Shown piece by piece: positions 1,777-7,421 of a stretch of 25,245 nt of DNA. The stretch is from the IMG/VR virus record IMGVR_UViG_3300008963_000029, positions 1 to 25,245 of that record; one strand, written 5' to 3'. The notes beneath the pieces were generated by a model that saw nothing but the letters and a program-made list of their open reading frames with translations, had not been told where the DNA came from and ran no database searches. The position numbers and the translations under genes were made by a program. The stretch is from a virus. Position 1 is the stretch's first letter; the number at the start of each line of letters is the position of its first letter.

Positions 1777-2442
1777 TTAAAATAGTTTTTGTTGTGATAC
1801 GTGGTTGCTAATTCGTTTTATCGCCTTGTCGTAATACTCCTTATCCAATTCACACGCTGTCAATTCAAATCCGTAATAGTGGCAAGCTATCGCTATTGAG
1901 CCTGAGCCTAAATGCGTGTCTAAAATTTTGTCTCCTTCTTTAGCGTATTTGTATAAAAGCCATTTGTAGAGCGCTACTGGTTTTTGAGTTGGGTGTATTC
2001 TTAATTCCTTATTTTTCATATCTTGTTGCAACATTCCATTCCAACGCCACTTAAACTGCCTAACAGATGTTTTAAAACTACACCAAGCTAATTCGCAATC
2101 AGCAAAATCACCTGTATTGTCTTTATCCCAAACAATCCAACAACTACTATTAGCATTTGGTATATTTTCAATAAAATAATTAGCACCGAAAATAATTTGA
2201 TTTTTAGAAACTCTTTGTAATTCAATAAAGTACTCTTTTTTAGGTGTAATATCCCATTCTCTATGATTTTCTATACTGCAATCAAATTTAGCTTTTACAC
2301 CTTTGCTTCCACTTCCGTATGTATTTTTTTTCATTCCATAAGGTGGATCAACTATTGCCAAGTCGAAGTAATTGTCAGGATAACGAGCCATTAACTCCAT
2401 ATTGTCCTCATTCGTTATTGTTATCTTATCTGTTACTTTCAT
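1777..2442 (-). CDS. DNA methyltransferase, beta-class amino-MTase (N6-adenine or N4-cytosine)
   Basis: This transfers a methyl group from S-adenosylmethionine to an exocyclic amino group of a DNA base. Motif IV DPPYGM is near the N-terminus (residues 32-37), while the HPTQKP motif (about 150-155) and the cofactor-binding motif DTHLGSGS (about 175-182), followed by an acidic ELD, are near the C-terminus. This motif order is that of the beta class. The usual DPFxGSG is DTHLGSG here. At 221 residues it is compact, with a short region between the halves, so target specificity cannot be read. It overlaps the upstream paralogue gene by four bases (ATGA) and is one base before the downstream one. 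No restriction endonuclease is nearby, so this is probably an orphan phage methyltransferase protecting phage DNA from host restriction; that role is inferred. Confidence 0.9.
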   Translation of the reverse strand: MKVTDKITITNEDNMELMARYPDNYFDLAIVDPPYGMKKNTYGSGSKGVKAKFDCSIENHREWDITPKKEYFIELQRVSKNQIIFGANYFIENIPNANSSCWIVWDKDNTGDFADCELAWCSFKTSVRQFKWRWNGMLQQDMKNKELRIHPTQKPVALYKWLLYKYAKEGDKILDTHLGSGSIAIACHYYGFELTACELDKEYYDKAIKRISNHVSQQKLF

Positions 2443-4912: not shown

Positions 4913-5134
4913 ATGGAAGATAAAATTATGAGTAAAGAACAGAACTTAGAAGATAAAGACAAGGCATTACATATAGGTGGTGTTAGCGGTTCGTTTGATT
5001 TAGATGATGTAAGAGCCTCTATTCAAAACGCATTGTACGAAGAAGGGATAGGTCTATTTAAATGCCTAACTGTTTGTGATAACATACTAAAACATTTAGA
5101 AGCTGATGGGATGGTGGTTAGAAATGACCGCTAA
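4913..5134 (+). CDS. hypothetical cargo protein (73 aa)
   Basis: A small acidic protein: charged N-terminus (SKEQNLEDKDKALHIGG), then SGSFDLDDVRASIQNALYEE and a helical LFKCLTVCDNILKHLEADG. No family recognised. A second possible ATG at 4928 follows AAAATT, which looks like the leaders used elsewhere here, so the true product may be five residues shorter. First gene after promoter P1. Its stop codon TAA lies inside the left arm of the attC-like inverted repeat, which is the arrangement seen for genes in integron cassettes. Likely an accessory gene. Confidence 0.6.
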   Translation: MEDKIMSKEQNLEDKDKALHIGGVSGSFDLDDVRASIQNALYEEGIGLFKCLTVCDNILKHLEADGMVVRNDR

Positions 5135-5252
5135 CGTTCGAGTGTATGAGCAGTAGCCGAACACTGAACTTGATTAGAAGTAGAAACTTAAATATTAACA
5201 ACTGCAATAGTTTGAAACGCCTAACGGCTATTGCTTATACACTTTGTTAGGC
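5131..5252 (+). repeat. attC-like imperfect inverted repeat
   Basis: GTGTATGAGCAGTAGCCG (5142-5159) pairs with CGGCTATTGCTTATACAC (5225-5242): 18 bp, all paired if two G-U are allowed, with a 65-base loop. Outside this, CTAAC (5131-5135) pairs with GTTAG (5246-5250), separated by unpaired spacers of 6 and 3 bases. The right end GTTAGGC (5246-5252) fits the integron R' core GTTRRRY. The two-box-pair layout resembles a folded attC site. No integron integrase is in the window, and a Bacteroidota intergenic repeat of other origin is possible. Confidence 0.55.
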
Positions 5253-5264
5253 ACTTTTAAAATT

Positions 5265-5414
5265 ATGGACGGATTAACAATAGCTTTTATAGTAATATCA
5301 GGATTAAATGTTTTAATGAACTTAATAAAACTAATAGTTGAAGATGAAAACAAAACAACTTCATTTAGTGCTACAATAGGATGGACTTGTGCTATTTTAT
5401 GGGCAATAATTTAA
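5265..5414 (+). CDS. small membrane protein (49 aa)
   Basis: ATG 5265-5267 opens a 49-residue frame with two hydrophobic segments: GLTIAFIVISGLNVLMNLIK (about 3-22) and ATIGWTCAILWAII (36-49), joined by a polar VEDENKTTS stretch. A two-span hairpin membrane protein is predicted. No family recognised; small phage membrane proteins can be toxins, superinfection exclusion factors or accessory holins, but nothing here decides. The start follows TTTTAAAATT, an A/T-rich leader. It is bracketed by GTTAGGC (5246-5252) and by its inverted partner GCCTAAC (5428-5434), as a gene cassette would be. Confidence 0.6.
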   Translation: MDGLTIAFIVISGLNVLMNLIKLIVEDENKTTSFSATIGWTCAILWAII

Positions 5415-5427
5415 TAATTTTTATTGA

Positions 5428-5444
5428 GCCTAACTAATGTATAA
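5428..5444 (-). repeat. partial inverted copy of the attC-like right arm
   Basis: GCCTAACTAATGTATAA here corresponds to the reverse complement of TTATACACTTTGTTAGGC (5235-5252): core GCCTAAC exact, then AA, then TGTATAA. GCCTAAC fits the integron R'' core RYYYAAC. No matching right arm follows before the next gene, so this would be a truncated site. Confidence 0.5.
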
Positions 5445-5466
5445 ACAACATTTAAAACTTTAAACA

Positions 5467-5691
5467 ATGTCAAAACTCAACAAAATAAAGGCATACATCG
5501 ACAATGCAATGATGAACGATGAGCTATCGAATGATGATTTGGTTGAATTAATTAAACATCTTGGAGCTTATGGTAATATTATGAGCGTTAAAGAATATTC
5601 GGATCAAAATAACATTACGGTCCAAGGAGTCTACAATCACAGAAACGTCGTAAATTTATGGGGTTTTAAGTTTGTGGTGGACAATGATTAA
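5467..5691 (+). CDS. small winged-HTH/excisionase-like protein (74 aa)
   Basis: Residues 1-35 are helical and acidic (NKIKAYIDNAMMNDELSNDD). Residues 39-72 read MSVKEYSDQNNITVQGVYNH followed by RNVVNLWGFKFVVDND. This is the pattern of MerR/excisionase-type HTH domains: a helix, a turn, a recognition helix with VQGVYNH, and a short wing. It may bind DNA as a regulator or recombination directionality factor; it could be the partner of the palindrome in promoter P1, but no evidence ties them. Start follows ACTTTAAACA; third gene of the P1 transcript. After it lies the control region of the second cargo promoter. Confidence 0.65.
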   Translation: MSKLNKIKAYIDNAMMNDELSNDDLVELIKHLGAYGNIMSVKEYSDQNNITVQGVYNHRNVVNLWGFKFVVDND

Positions 5692-5705
5692 AATAAATTC
5701 GCCCT

Positions 5706-5719
5706 GTAACCCCCGTAAA
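5706..5719 (+). promoter_or_regulatory. 14-bp element upstream of cargo promoter P2 (copy 2)
   Basis: GTAACCCCCGTAAA, identical to the minus-strand element at 4310-4297. Further similarity continues downstream of both copies (an AC-ACA stretch, then a run of A). It ends 42 bases before the TTTG box of promoter P2. Confidence 0.6.
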
Positions 5720-5761
5720 CACTACAATCTTAAAAATAATTAAAAAAAAGTTGATAAAAAG

Positions 5762-5793
5762 TTTGGTGGAACGAATATATGTGCTTATATTTG
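5762..5793 (+). promoter_or_regulatory. promoter P2 of the cargo island
   Basis: TTTG (5762-5765), 20 bases, then TATATTTG (5786-5793). The start of transcription would be near 5800, which rules out an ATG at 5779 and supports the ATG at 5821 for the next gene. The surrounding sequence resembles the early operon promoter. Confidence 0.8.
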
Positions 5794-5820
5794 TACAGAA
5801 CATTTAAAGAAATAGGAATT

Positions 5821-6039
5821 ATGAAAAAGTTATTAGAAGAAGTAAAAAAAGAATTAGCTACAATTAACACTAATTCAAGAAAAAGAAAATCACGTCCAAC
5901 AGGAATGCCTAAAAGGTATAATTTTAAAAAGGAAATTCAAGATGGGTTAACTCATACGGAATTAAGAATAGCATACCTATATGGTTTGATTGGTAAAAAA
6001 GGACGTGAAGGATCTATTATTGTTAATGGTGTAAAATAA
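5821..6039 (+). CDS. small basic protein upstream of the ATPase/acyltransferase (72 aa)
   Basis: The ATG at 5821 is chosen because it follows promoter P2 and the leader AAATAGGAATT; the upstream ATG at 5779 lies within the promoter. The product is strongly basic, with an N-terminal coiled-coil-like helix (MKKLLEEVKKELATINTN), a basic stretch SRKRKSRPTGMPKRYNFKKE, and a helical end (THTELRIAYLYGLIGKKGRE). Basic composition suggests nucleic-acid binding. No family recognised. It is eight bases upstream of the ABC/GNAT gene in the same transcript, so it may be a DNA-targeting or accessory partner of that enzyme; this is inferred from position only. Confidence 0.65.
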   Translation: MKKLLEEVKKELATINTNSRKRKSRPTGMPKRYNFKKEIQDGLTHTELRIAYLYGLIGKKGREGSIIVNGVK

Positions 6040-6046
6040 TTAATAC

Positions 6047-7213
6047 ATGAAATATATCGAAAAAAAACAATCAATAGTTAACGACAAGTATACTAATTAT
6101 GTTTACGAACATTTTGATATTCAAAATAAAAAACAAACGGTTGTAAAAATACCTTTTAATCTAACGGGTTTAGATTCTTTCGATTGGAATATTGGTGTTA
6201 TTTACGGTGGTTCGGGAACTGGTAAAACAACTTTATTAAAAGAATTTGGCGATTTATCAGAAACTAATTTTGATGATGAAAAACCATTAATAAGTAATTT
6301 TGATTGGTTAGAACCTAAAGAATCGACTTTTTTGTTAAGCGCAATGGGGTTAGCTTCTGTGCCTACTTGGTTGCGACCTTACGCACTTTTAAGTAATGGC
6401 GAACAATATAGAGCATCTTTAGCATATAAAGTAGGTAAAGCGTCTAAAAACAATATCATATTAGTTGATGAGTTTACAAGCGTTGTAGACAGGGATGTAG
6501 CAAAAACAATGAGTAACGCTTTACAAAAATATATTAGACGAACGAATAAAAAAATAATACTTGCATCTTGTCATTTTGATATTATGGAATGGTTGTTACC
6601 TGATTGGACTTATTCACCGTTAAAAGGGCGTCTCGAGAGAGCGTCTTGTCGAAGGCAAAGACCAAAAATTGAATTACAGATATTTCGATGTAGATATGAA
6701 ACTTGGAATATGTTCAAAAAATATCACTATCTAACTGAACAGTTGAATAAATCTGCTAAGTGTTTTATTGTAACGTGGAACGATAAACCAGTTTGTTTTG
6801 TTGGCATTATTCCATTTCCCAGCGGAAAAGTTAAGAATGGTTTTAGGATTAGTAGAATAGTAGTTTTGCCAGATTACCAAGGTTTAGGGATAGGAAGTAA
6901 GATTTGTGACTTTTTATCCTCCATGTATAAAAAAGACGGTAAAACTATATACATAAAAACATCAAACCCTTCTTTATGGCATTTCTTTAAGAAATCAAAA
7001 AACTGGTCTTTCTCAGGTGAAACAAAAGGAGAATTAGTATCTAATTTAATGAAAACTAGAGATAAAAACATAGGAAAAAAAGTTGAATACAACAATAGAA
7101 TATCTAAGACTTATAAATATACAGGTGTTCCTTTTACGGGAAATATTGACCTAATAAAGTTTAAATCAGATGTATATAAAGATGTTTCAATTAATCAAAC
7201 TAAACTATTTTAA
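6047..7213 (+). CDS. fused ABC-type ATPase and GNAT acyltransferase (388 aa)
   Basis: Residues 35-195 are an ABC-type ATPase: Walker A GGSGTGKTT (54-62), a divergent signature LSNGEQ (115-120), Walker B IILVDEF (137-143) and a switch His in ASCHFD (His 176). There is no membrane domain, so it is not a transporter. Residues about 215-325 are a GNAT acyltransferase, with the acyl-CoA loop RIVVLPDYQGLGIG (270-283) and a preceding KKYHYL segment (225-229). I recall such ABC-GNAT fusions as COG2401, and similar GNATs as relatives of the phage Mu Mom DNA-modification enzyme. An ATP-dependent DNA base acylation against restriction is therefore plausible but inferred; tRNA or protein acylation are alternatives. 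Residues 326-388 are a Lys-rich tail. It shares an upstream control element with the early operon that encodes a methyltransferase. Confidence 0.85.
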   Translation: MKYIEKKQSIVNDKYTNYVYEHFDIQNKKQTVVKIPFNLTGLDSFDWNIGVIYGGSGTGKTTLLKEFGDLSETNFDDEKPLISNFDWLEPKESTFLLSAMGLASVPTWLRPYALLSNGEQYRASLAYKVGKASKNNIILVDEFTSVVDRDVAKTMSNALQKYIRRTNKKIILASCHFDIMEWLLPDWTYSPLKGRLERASCRRQRPKIELQIFRCRYETWNMFKKYHYLTEQLNKSAKCFIVTWNDKPVCFVGIIPFPSGKVKNGFRISRIVVLPDYQGLGIGSKICDFLSSMYKKDGKTIYIKTSNPSLWHFFKKSKNWSFSGETKGELVSNLMKTRDKNIGKKVEYNNRISKTYKYTGVPFTGNIDLIKFKSDVYKDVSINQTKLF

Positions 7214-7214
7214 A

Positions 7215-7421
7215 ATGACTAAAAAACAAATCGGAAACAAAATCCAGACCCTACGCAAAAAGCGTGGGGTTTCAACGTATAAAATACGTAAGGAAGGAAT
7301 ACACTCCCACACACCTAACTCAATCGAGAAAGGTGCGACTAATTACACTATTGATGTTTTGATTGAGTACTTGGATTCGTGTGGTTTGGAGTTGGATGTT
7401 AAAAATCAAACTCAATCTTAG
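7215..7421 (+). CDS. small XRE-like HTH protein (68 aa)
   Basis: ATG 7215 is chosen because the ABC/GNAT stop ends one base before it; an ATG at 7170 would overlap that gene. The product opens IGNKIQTLRKKRGVSTYKIR, a classic first helix and turn of Cro/C1-type HTH domains, continues with HTPNSIEKGATNYTIDVLIE (recognition helix and following helix) and ends with LDSCGLELDVK. It probably binds DNA as a regulator, perhaps of the cargo promoters. Its last 23 bases overlap the 3' end of the amidase gene on the other strand, so late and cargo transcripts collide here and no terminator separates them. Confidence 0.75.
   Translation: MTKKQIGNKIQTLRKKRGVSTYKIRKEGIHSHTPNSIEKGATNYTIDVLIEYLDSCGLELDVKNQTQS

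What the first reader, a model, noticed from the sequence alone, without database searches (positions are those of the whole stretch)
6047..7213. ABC-type ATPase fused to a GNAT acyltransferase as phage cargo
Directly seen: intact Walker A, Walker B, a divergent signature and switch His in an ATPase without membrane domain, followed in the same chain by a GNAT domain with an intact acyl-CoA loop. Established: such fusions form COG2401, and Mu Mom is a GNAT-related enzyme that modifies adenines in phage DNA. Inference: this enzyme modifies phage DNA (or tRNA/protein) in an ATP-dependent way, together with the small basic protein encoded just before it and the XRE-like protein after it. A three-gene modification module of this form would be new to me.
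Basis: partly seen in the sequence, partly recalled or inferred. Interest (0 to 1): 0.7.

Follow-up and report, generated by a model that had tools for sequence, protein, structure and literature searches.

The report
Phage ATPase–acetyltransferase with clamp-binding tail
This phage gene makes a two-part enzyme, an ATP-burning motor joined to an acetyltransferase, that most likely attaches a chemical group to the phage's own DNA; its family and that guess were already published, but this branch carries a conserved tail that looks like a hook for the ring that travels with replicating DNA, which makes the untested guess easy to test.

Summary
Window 6047-7213 (+) encodes 388 residues: a complete ABC-type ATPase without a membrane domain (1-204) and a complete GNAT acyltransferase (206-361). 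The family is widespread (phrog_11143) and was already predicted to acylate a DNA base: PMC7824862 names phage pT24, whose protein is 53% identical. The proposed three-gene module fails: neither small neighbour has any match in annotated phages. New evidence points to DNA as substrate. Most relatives outside this branch directly follow a ParB-like gene or its free C-terminal piece; one record fuses all three in one chain. In Mu-like phages the gene sits at the right end, where others carry mom. The window's branch lacks ParB (24 of 25 records); instead 68 of 69 distinct proteins end in Q-x-x-[LMI]-F (QTKLF here), resembling the bacterial beta-clamp motif QL(S/D)LF; 0 of 165 from other branches do. 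In the same phages 8 of 11 DNA methyltransferases, including the window's (QQKLF), end likewise, against about 1% of other ORFs. Most likely it is an ATP-dependent DNA-base acyltransferase tethered to the sliding clamp. Base, acyl group and clamp binding are inferred. New variant of a known, untested kind.

The parts
6047..7213 (+). CDS of the ABC-ATPase/GNAT fusion, 388 aa, phrog_11143
6206..6229 (+). Walker A GGSGTGKT (residues 54-61)
   Evidence: sequence; G54, S56, G57, G59, K60 invariant in 102 relatives
6389..6406 (+). ABC signature LSNGEQ (115-120)
   Evidence: L115, S116, G118 invariant in 102 relatives
6455..6490 (+). Walker B with catalytic Glu (137-142) and D-loop SVVD (145-148)
   Evidence: D141, E142, S145, D148 invariant
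6572..6574 (+). switch histidine H176
   Evidence: 102 of 102
6662..7129 (+). GNAT domain (206-361)
   Evidence: Pfam PF00583; VIA-align Z 14.0 to 1y9k_B over 206-361, rmsd 2.7, 134 aligned
6725..6730 (+). H227-Y228, conserved pair at the start of the GNAT domain
   Evidence: H 101/102, Y 102/102; an HY pair is also invariant in five Mom proteins and present in TmcA
6854..6895 (+). acyl-CoA binding loop RIVVLPDYQGLGIG (270-283)
   Evidence: R270, P275, Q278, G279 invariant
7127..7210 (+). C-terminal tail (361-388), 27-30 residues in the aligned members of this branch
   Evidence: the last 6 residues have pLDDT under 50
7196..7210 (+). QTKLF (384-388), predicted beta-sliding-clamp binding motif
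   Evidence: Q-x-x-[LMI]-F at the C-terminus in 68 of 69 proteins of the branch, 0 of 165 outside it; consensus QL(S/D)LF stated in PMC9690074
1777..2442 (-). N6/N4 DNA methyltransferase ending in QQKLF; second DNA-modifying enzyme of the phage with the same kind of tail
   Evidence: PF01555 E 2.6e-16; tail statistics
5821..6039 (+). basic 72-aa ORF just upstream; probably not part of the system
   Evidence: no Pfam or PHROG match, not conserved near relatives, no phage match
7215..7421 (+). XRE-like 68-aa ORF just downstream; probably not part of the system
   Evidence: phrog_8522 HTH E 3.7e-8; no phage match

Best explanation
It is an ATP-dependent acyltransferase that modifies bases of the phage's own DNA during or just after replication, probably to protect it from host nucleases. 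The GNAT half binds an acyl-CoA and transfers the acyl group, most likely to an exocyclic amine of a base. The ABC half dimerises head-to-tail and uses ATP to grip, open or scan the DNA so that a base can enter the active site. In most relatives outside the window's branch a ParB-like partner, or a small protein equal to its C-terminal end, probably brings the enzyme to DNA. In the window's branch that partner is absent, and a C-terminal QxxLF tail probably hooks the enzyme onto the sliding clamp, as it would the phage's DNA methyltransferase. Shown: both domains, intact motifs, the tail, the gene contexts, the fusion. Inferred: DNA as substrate, clamp binding, base and acyl identity, protection.
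For: (1) Both catalytic domains intact and invariant. (2) C-terminal QxxLF in 68/69 proteins of the branch, 0/165 outside; one clade, support 100/96; in these phages 8 of 11 DNA methyltransferases end the same way (PF01555 6/7, PF00145 2/4) against 6 of 674 other ORFs. (3) Outside the branch the gene directly follows a ParB-like gene or its C-terminal piece: 70 of 80 genome loci, and 70 of about 74 that have upstream DNA; L206 encodes ParB-like + piece + ATPase-GNAT as one chain. Common order ParB, ATPase-GNAT, terminase, portal. (4) At the right end of Mu-like phages it occupies the place of mom: Porphyromonas phage008a, transposase and Mu Gam present, module ends 168 bp from the end, against Mu, JD024 and TCUEAP3 mom; 25 of 33 viral contigs of 30-45 kb carry it within 1.6 kb of an end. 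(5) mom too can follow a ParB-like gene (Appa). (6) TmcA, an RNA cytidine acetyltransferase with a P-loop ATPase before a GNAT, is the only ATPase+GNAT protein among the 50 top Foldseek rows.
Against: No modified base has been shown for any member. The GNAT half alone resembles small-molecule and protein acetyltransferases best (1y9k, 1yvk, Naa50, RimI). Sequence comparison with Mom is negative. The tail statistics count related sequences and are not independent events. QTKLF departs from QL(S/D)LF at positions 2 and 3. Clamp binding could equally serve a DNA repair or replication-control role.
Confidence: 0.62

Rival explanations
1. It acylates an RNA base (host or phage tRNA), as TmcA acetylates cytidine 34 of elongator tRNA-Met with help of ATP.
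For: TmcA 2zpa at ranks 5-6 in Foldseek, 425-451 alignment columns; PF13718 24.4 bits against cut-off 24.6; hhalign places P-loop, DE motif, HY pair and acyl-CoA loop in the same order, E 0.023. ASCH/DUF3850 domains, which occur in RNA-linked proteins, lie next door in 14 branch loci and in Streptococcus phages.
Against: The ATPase is ABC-type, not RecD-like. The ParB-like partner, mom position, terminase and replication-module contexts and the DNA-methyltransferase-like tail all point to DNA.
Confidence: 0.12
2. It acetylates a host protein, such as RNA polymerase, as the phage acetyltransferase Rac does, with the ATPase as regulator.
For: GNAT half matches RimI and Naa50. Rac as precedent is described in PMC7824862.
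Against: Strict conservation of an ABC ATPase and pairing with ParB-like genes are not expected; in many members the gene lies beside terminase or at the Mu right end, in late positions.
Confidence: 0.1
3. It is a DNA-structural or packaging factor in which the ABC half acts on DNA and the GNAT half is a binding domain or acts on a partner protein.
For: ParB-like partner and terminase neighbours; relatives in SSU5 and Acinetobacter phage-plasmids pair ParB-like genes with an ABC ATPase lacking the GNAT.
Against: The acyl-CoA loop is invariant across 102 diverse members, which argues for catalysis; split forms keep both genes adjacent.
Confidence: 0.1

Closest known systems
ABC ATPase-coupled GNAT predicted to modify DNA bases (Iyer et al. 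2013, cited in PMC7824862; Tenacibaculum phage pT24)
   Same: Same two-domain protein; pT24 is 53% identical over 98%; same predicted role
   Different: The window's branch has a C-terminal QxxLF tail and no ParB-like gene nearby. The passages I could read do not mention tail, ParB partner or mom position; the 2013 paper was not available
Mom of phage Mu (PDB 8bv8, named methylcarbamoylase there)
   Same: GNAT superfamily; DNA modification; same genome slot in Mu-like phages; can follow a ParB-like gene; an HY pair
   Different: No ATPase domain, no significant sequence similarity, no QxxGxG acyl-CoA loop visible in Mom
TmcA, tRNA(Met) cytidine acetyltransferase (PDB 2zpa)
   Same: P-loop ATPase followed by a GNAT with an HY pair and QxxGxG-type loop; ATP used for base acetylation (function from general knowledge)
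   Different: Different ATPase class, RNA substrate, 671 residues
beta-clamp-binding proteins of bacteria (motif QL(S/D)LF at the C-terminus, PMC9690074)
   Same: C-terminal QxxLF, flexible end
   Different: Binding not tested; positions 2-3 vary (IS, TR, TK, LN)

Membership tests
phrog_11143 (phage ATPase-GNAT family, function unknown) | full-length profile match | tested here: met
   E 3.2e-140, residues 3-362 on positions 2-352 of 357
ABC ATPase superfamily | Walker A, Walker B with Glu, signature S-x-G, D-loop, switch His | tested here: met
   all present and invariant; fold Z about 14 to ABC cassettes over 1-204
GNAT acyltransferase superfamily | fold and Q/RxxGxG/A acyl-CoA loop | tested here: met
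   PF00583 37.5 bits over cut-off 20.7; QGLGIG; Z 14.0 to 1y9k_B
ABC-coupled GNAT predicted DNA-modification group (PMC7824862) | homology to the named example pT24 | tested here: met
   53% identity over 98% of the query
ABC-coupled GNAT predicted DNA-modification group (PMC7824862) | acylated base in phage DNA | not testable with these tools
   needs nucleoside mass spectrometry; never shown for any member as far as found
COG2401 | match to the COG2401 profile | not testable with these tools
   no COG library on hand; no paper names it
Mom family | significant sequence similarity to Mu Mom | tested here: not met
   BLASTP short non-corresponding match, E 0.034; hhalign E 0.43, probability 0.1%
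Mom family | right-end position in Mu-like phages | tested here: not met
   not met by the window phage itself (replication-side island); met by distant relatives of the ATPase-GNAT
TmcA family | PF13718 GNAT_acetyltr_2 above cut-off | tested here: not met
   24.4 bits against 24.6
beta-clamp-binding proteins | C-terminal QL(S/D)LF-type motif | tested here: met
   loose form QTKLF; 68/69 in branch
beta-clamp-binding proteins | binding to DnaN | not testable with these tools
   needs a pull-down or titration
ParB-like + ATPase-GNAT module | ParB-like gene or its C-terminal piece next door | tested here: not met
   no PF02195 in the window and in 24 of 25 branch records (records may be fragments); no 'sm' HMM match

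The most novel reading that the evidence does not exclude
An ABC-ATPase-driven DNA-base acyltransferase, in effect the DNA counterpart of TmcA, makes a base modification not yet seen in DNA and is delivered in two interchangeable ways: by a ParB-like CTPase-fold loader in most phages, and by riding the host sliding clamp in this branch, alongside clamp-tethered DNA methyltransferases.
Probability: 0.35. Interest if true: 0.78.

Novelty: new variant of a known kind. Interest (0 to 1): 0.52.

Why it matters
The family occurs in phages and prophages of many bacterial phyla, yet no member's product is known to me. The tail, the ParB-like partner, the natural fusion and the mom-like position give concrete handles: a five-residue deletion, a pull-down with DnaN and a nucleoside analysis would settle substrate and delivery. 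If confirmed it would add an ATP-driven class of DNA-modifying enzymes to phage anti-restriction.

Tried and rejected
Three-gene module with the basic 72-aa and XRE-like proteins: rejected. Homology to Mom by sequence: none found. Mom (8bv8) did not appear among the 50 rows shown of the structure searches, which excludes nothing. Known defence system: PADLOC gives only weak ATPase matches. The first structure model from close relatives only was poor (pLDDT 75.8) and was replaced by one on a diverse alignment (89.5). An alignment of the L206 fusion with separate ParB and ATPase-GNAT rows (A3) came out misaligned (ParB rows laid over the ATPase), so the fusion was not folded. Searching archaea for COG2401-like proteins failed because the tool needs a genome handle. 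Promoter scan of the + strand island gave no more than shuffles. Iyer 2013, Iyer 2009 and Karambelkar 2020 are not in the paper library. The tail test used methyltransferase seeds chosen partly because they carry the tail; it was therefore repeated with Pfam families alone, with the same outcome.

Full report
WHAT IS THERE. Window 6047-7213 (+) is an intact 388-residue ORF. Residues 1-204 form an ABC-type ATPase and residues 206-361 a GNAT acyltransferase. Pfam, PHROGs and NCBIfam agree, and a model on a diverse alignment of 102 sequences is confident (pLDDT 89.5, pTM 0.83). VIA-align gives Z about 14 to ABC cassettes for the first part and Z 14.0 (rmsd 2.7, 134 residues) to the acetyltransferase 1y9k_B for the second. 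Every ABC motif, the GNAT acyl-CoA loop and an H-Y pair at the start of the GNAT domain are invariant or nearly so at 28-69% identity. Both halves are therefore very likely active.

HOW WIDE THE FAMILY IS. 175 relatives were seen in viral contigs with the window protein as query, 359 with a distant member, 53 annotated phage records, and 427 stretches in bacterial and archaeal genomes, mostly Planctomycetota among the 80 kept. In two Planctomycetota loci examined, portal genes with terminase or head protease follow, so these are prophages. In Lactococcus, Streptococcus, Oenococcus, Enterococcus and Thomasclavelia phages the match falls in two pieces over two adjacent annotated genes: the fusion also exists in split form.

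PRIOR KNOWLEDGE. The 2021 jumbo-phage survey PMC7824862 says that a GNAT coupled with an ABC ATPase was predicted earlier to make an uncharacterised acyl modification of a DNA base, and names phage pT24. The pT24 protein is 53% identical to the window protein. So neither the family nor the DNA-modification idea is new. No experimental test was found, but the 2013 source paper was not available to me.

PARTNERS. In the rest of the family the gene immediately upstream is a ParB-like protein, usually overlapping by 4-22 bases. In Mu-like phages a 36-69-residue ORF stands there instead; 65 such ORFs passed a strict cut. A profile built from these small ORFs matches the C-terminal end of the ParB-like proteins (Gordonia gp1 residues 165-201 E 5e-13, EastWest 8e-7), so the small protein is the free C-terminal piece of the ParB-like partner. 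Among 80 genome loci 70 have the ParB-like gene or the piece next door, and six of the ten others are cut off upstream. In L206 ParB-like domain, piece and ATPase-GNAT form one polypeptide. This is strong evidence for a physical complex. A formyltransferase-like gene follows in 53 of 80 viral loci of the Mu-like group and in Gordonia and Porphyromonas phages, and an aspartate-decarboxylase gene in phage Jace; these may supply or tailor the acyl group (inference).

MOM-LIKE POSITION. In Porphyromonas phage008a, a Mu-like phage with transposase, Mu B-like and Mu Gam-like genes, the order is tail genes, small ORF, ATPase-GNAT, formyltransferase, genome end. Mu, Pseudomonas phage JD024 and Elizabethkingia phage TCUEAP3 have mom in that slot. 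25 of 33 viral contigs of 30-45 kb in this group carry the gene within 1.6 kb of the contig end (provirus ends in that collection are predicted, and contigs were picked by hand). Komp_PAO1_1, with transposase and Gam-like genes, has the same order in a record opened elsewhere. In Microbacterium phage Appa, mom itself follows a ParB-like gene with an 8-base overlap, and in the marine flavophage P12002L mom lies beside a DNA methylase. Mom and the ATPase-GNAT thus exchange in the same contexts although their sequences show no significant similarity. An H-Y pair is invariant in five Mom proteins and present in TmcA; hhalign puts it in register with the H-Y of this family, but neither alignment is significant, so this is only a lead.

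THE WINDOW'S BRANCH. The window belongs to one well-supported branch (100/96) that includes P12024S, a phage of a marine flavobacterium. Here the gene lies in replication and recombination modules in P12024S and many contigs. No ParB_N domain occurs in the window or in 24 of 25 branch records, though these may be fragments. Instead the proteins carry a C-terminal extension of 27-30 residues that ends in Q-x-x-[LMI]-F: 68 of 69 distinct proteins, against 0 of 165 in other branches. The one exception, L058, is cut a few residues earlier by a stop codon inside the tblastn match. Forms include QISLF, QISMF, QISIF, QTRLF, QLNIF, QLSLF; the window has QTKLF. A review gives QL(S/D)LF at the C-terminus as the conserved beta-clamp-binding pentapeptide of bacteria (PMC9690074).

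A CHECK ON THE TAIL. If the tail marks DNA-directed enzymes, other such enzymes of these phages should have it. The window's own N6/N4 DNA methyltransferase (1777-2442, -) ends in QQKLF. Pfam searches of 47 branch records found 11 DNA methyltransferases; 6 of 7 N6/N4 and 2 of 4 C5 enzymes end in QxxLF, while 6 of 674 other ORFs of at least 100 residues do. The sequences are related, one methyltransferase pair is near-identical, and the counts are not independent, but two different methylase families share the feature. This is the best evidence that the window protein acts on DNA, near replication forks.

MECHANISM. Step 1, delivery: tail to sliding clamp (inferred). Step 2, ATP-driven ABC dimer engages DNA (inferred from intact ABC motifs). 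Step 3, acyl-CoA bound in the GNAT loop and acyl transfer to a base amine (inferred from the GNAT motif and the TmcA precedent, which Foldseek ranks 5-6 and which is the only other ATPase+GNAT protein in the list). Step 4, protection from host nucleases (inference by analogy with Mom). I put 0.62 on DNA-base acylation with clamp tethering, somewhat more on DNA-base acylation alone.

LIMITS. No biochemical data exist here. Base, acyl group and sequence specificity are unknown. COG2401 membership was not testable. The closest known systems are the ABC-GNAT group itself (member), Mom (works like, not a member) and TmcA (analogy).

Noticed in passing
window 1777-2442 (-): N6/N4 DNA methyltransferase ending in QQKLF; 8 of 11 DNA methyltransferases in 47 related phage records end in QxxLF, suggesting clamp-tethered methylation in marine flavophages generally.
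   Followed up: partly
L003:4444-4884, L004:7125-7565, L006:2205-2645, L028:7364-7804: A 146-aa family without Pfam match, just downstream of the ATPase-GNAT, also ends in QQ[LF]LF.
   Followed up: no
L095:3738-3887, L090:3759-3887, L085:1-606 and 65 viral loci: A small ORF before the ATPase-GNAT in Mu-like phages is the free C-terminal piece of the ParB-like partner found elsewhere; in Porphyromonas phage records it is labelled 'acr candidate', which this context makes doubtful.
   Followed up: partly
L095:4996-5613, L085:1805-2452, L090:5014-5487: Formyltransferase-fold gene overlapping the end of the ATPase-GNAT gene in Mu-like, Gordonia and Porphyromonas phages; in the two read here (L095, L090) the residue two before the HPS motif is not the usual catalytic Asn (expected from general knowledge).
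   Followed up: no
L086:6053-6478; L213:1458-1904: Aspartate decarboxylase (PanD-like) gene directly after the ATPase-GNAT in phage Jace, and within 3.5 kb in Alsobacter; a possible beta-alanine supply.
   Followed up: no
L051:2796-3017 and 13 other branch loci; L093:4889-5257; L087:5996-6373: ASCH/DUF3850 domain genes close downstream of the ATPase-GNAT in flavophages and Streptococcus phages, a possible reader or eraser of the modification.
   Followed up: partly
L264:2469-3002 (Appa gp46): The ParB-like protein before mom ends in a CPSC knuckle-like sequence; Mu Com, which precedes mom, is a zinc-finger protein.
   Followed up: no
L088:5760-5762: Tenacibaculum phage pT24 has an in-frame TGA inside its ATPase-GNAT gene, annotated as two genes.
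   Followed up: no
L098, L099: Phage-plasmids of Acinetobacter and SSU5 carry two ParB-like genes followed by a related ABC ATPase without GNAT.
   Followed up: no
window 4913-7421: A + strand island with reversed GC skew between - strand modules, holding the ATPase-GNAT and small unmatched ORFs.
   Followed up: no
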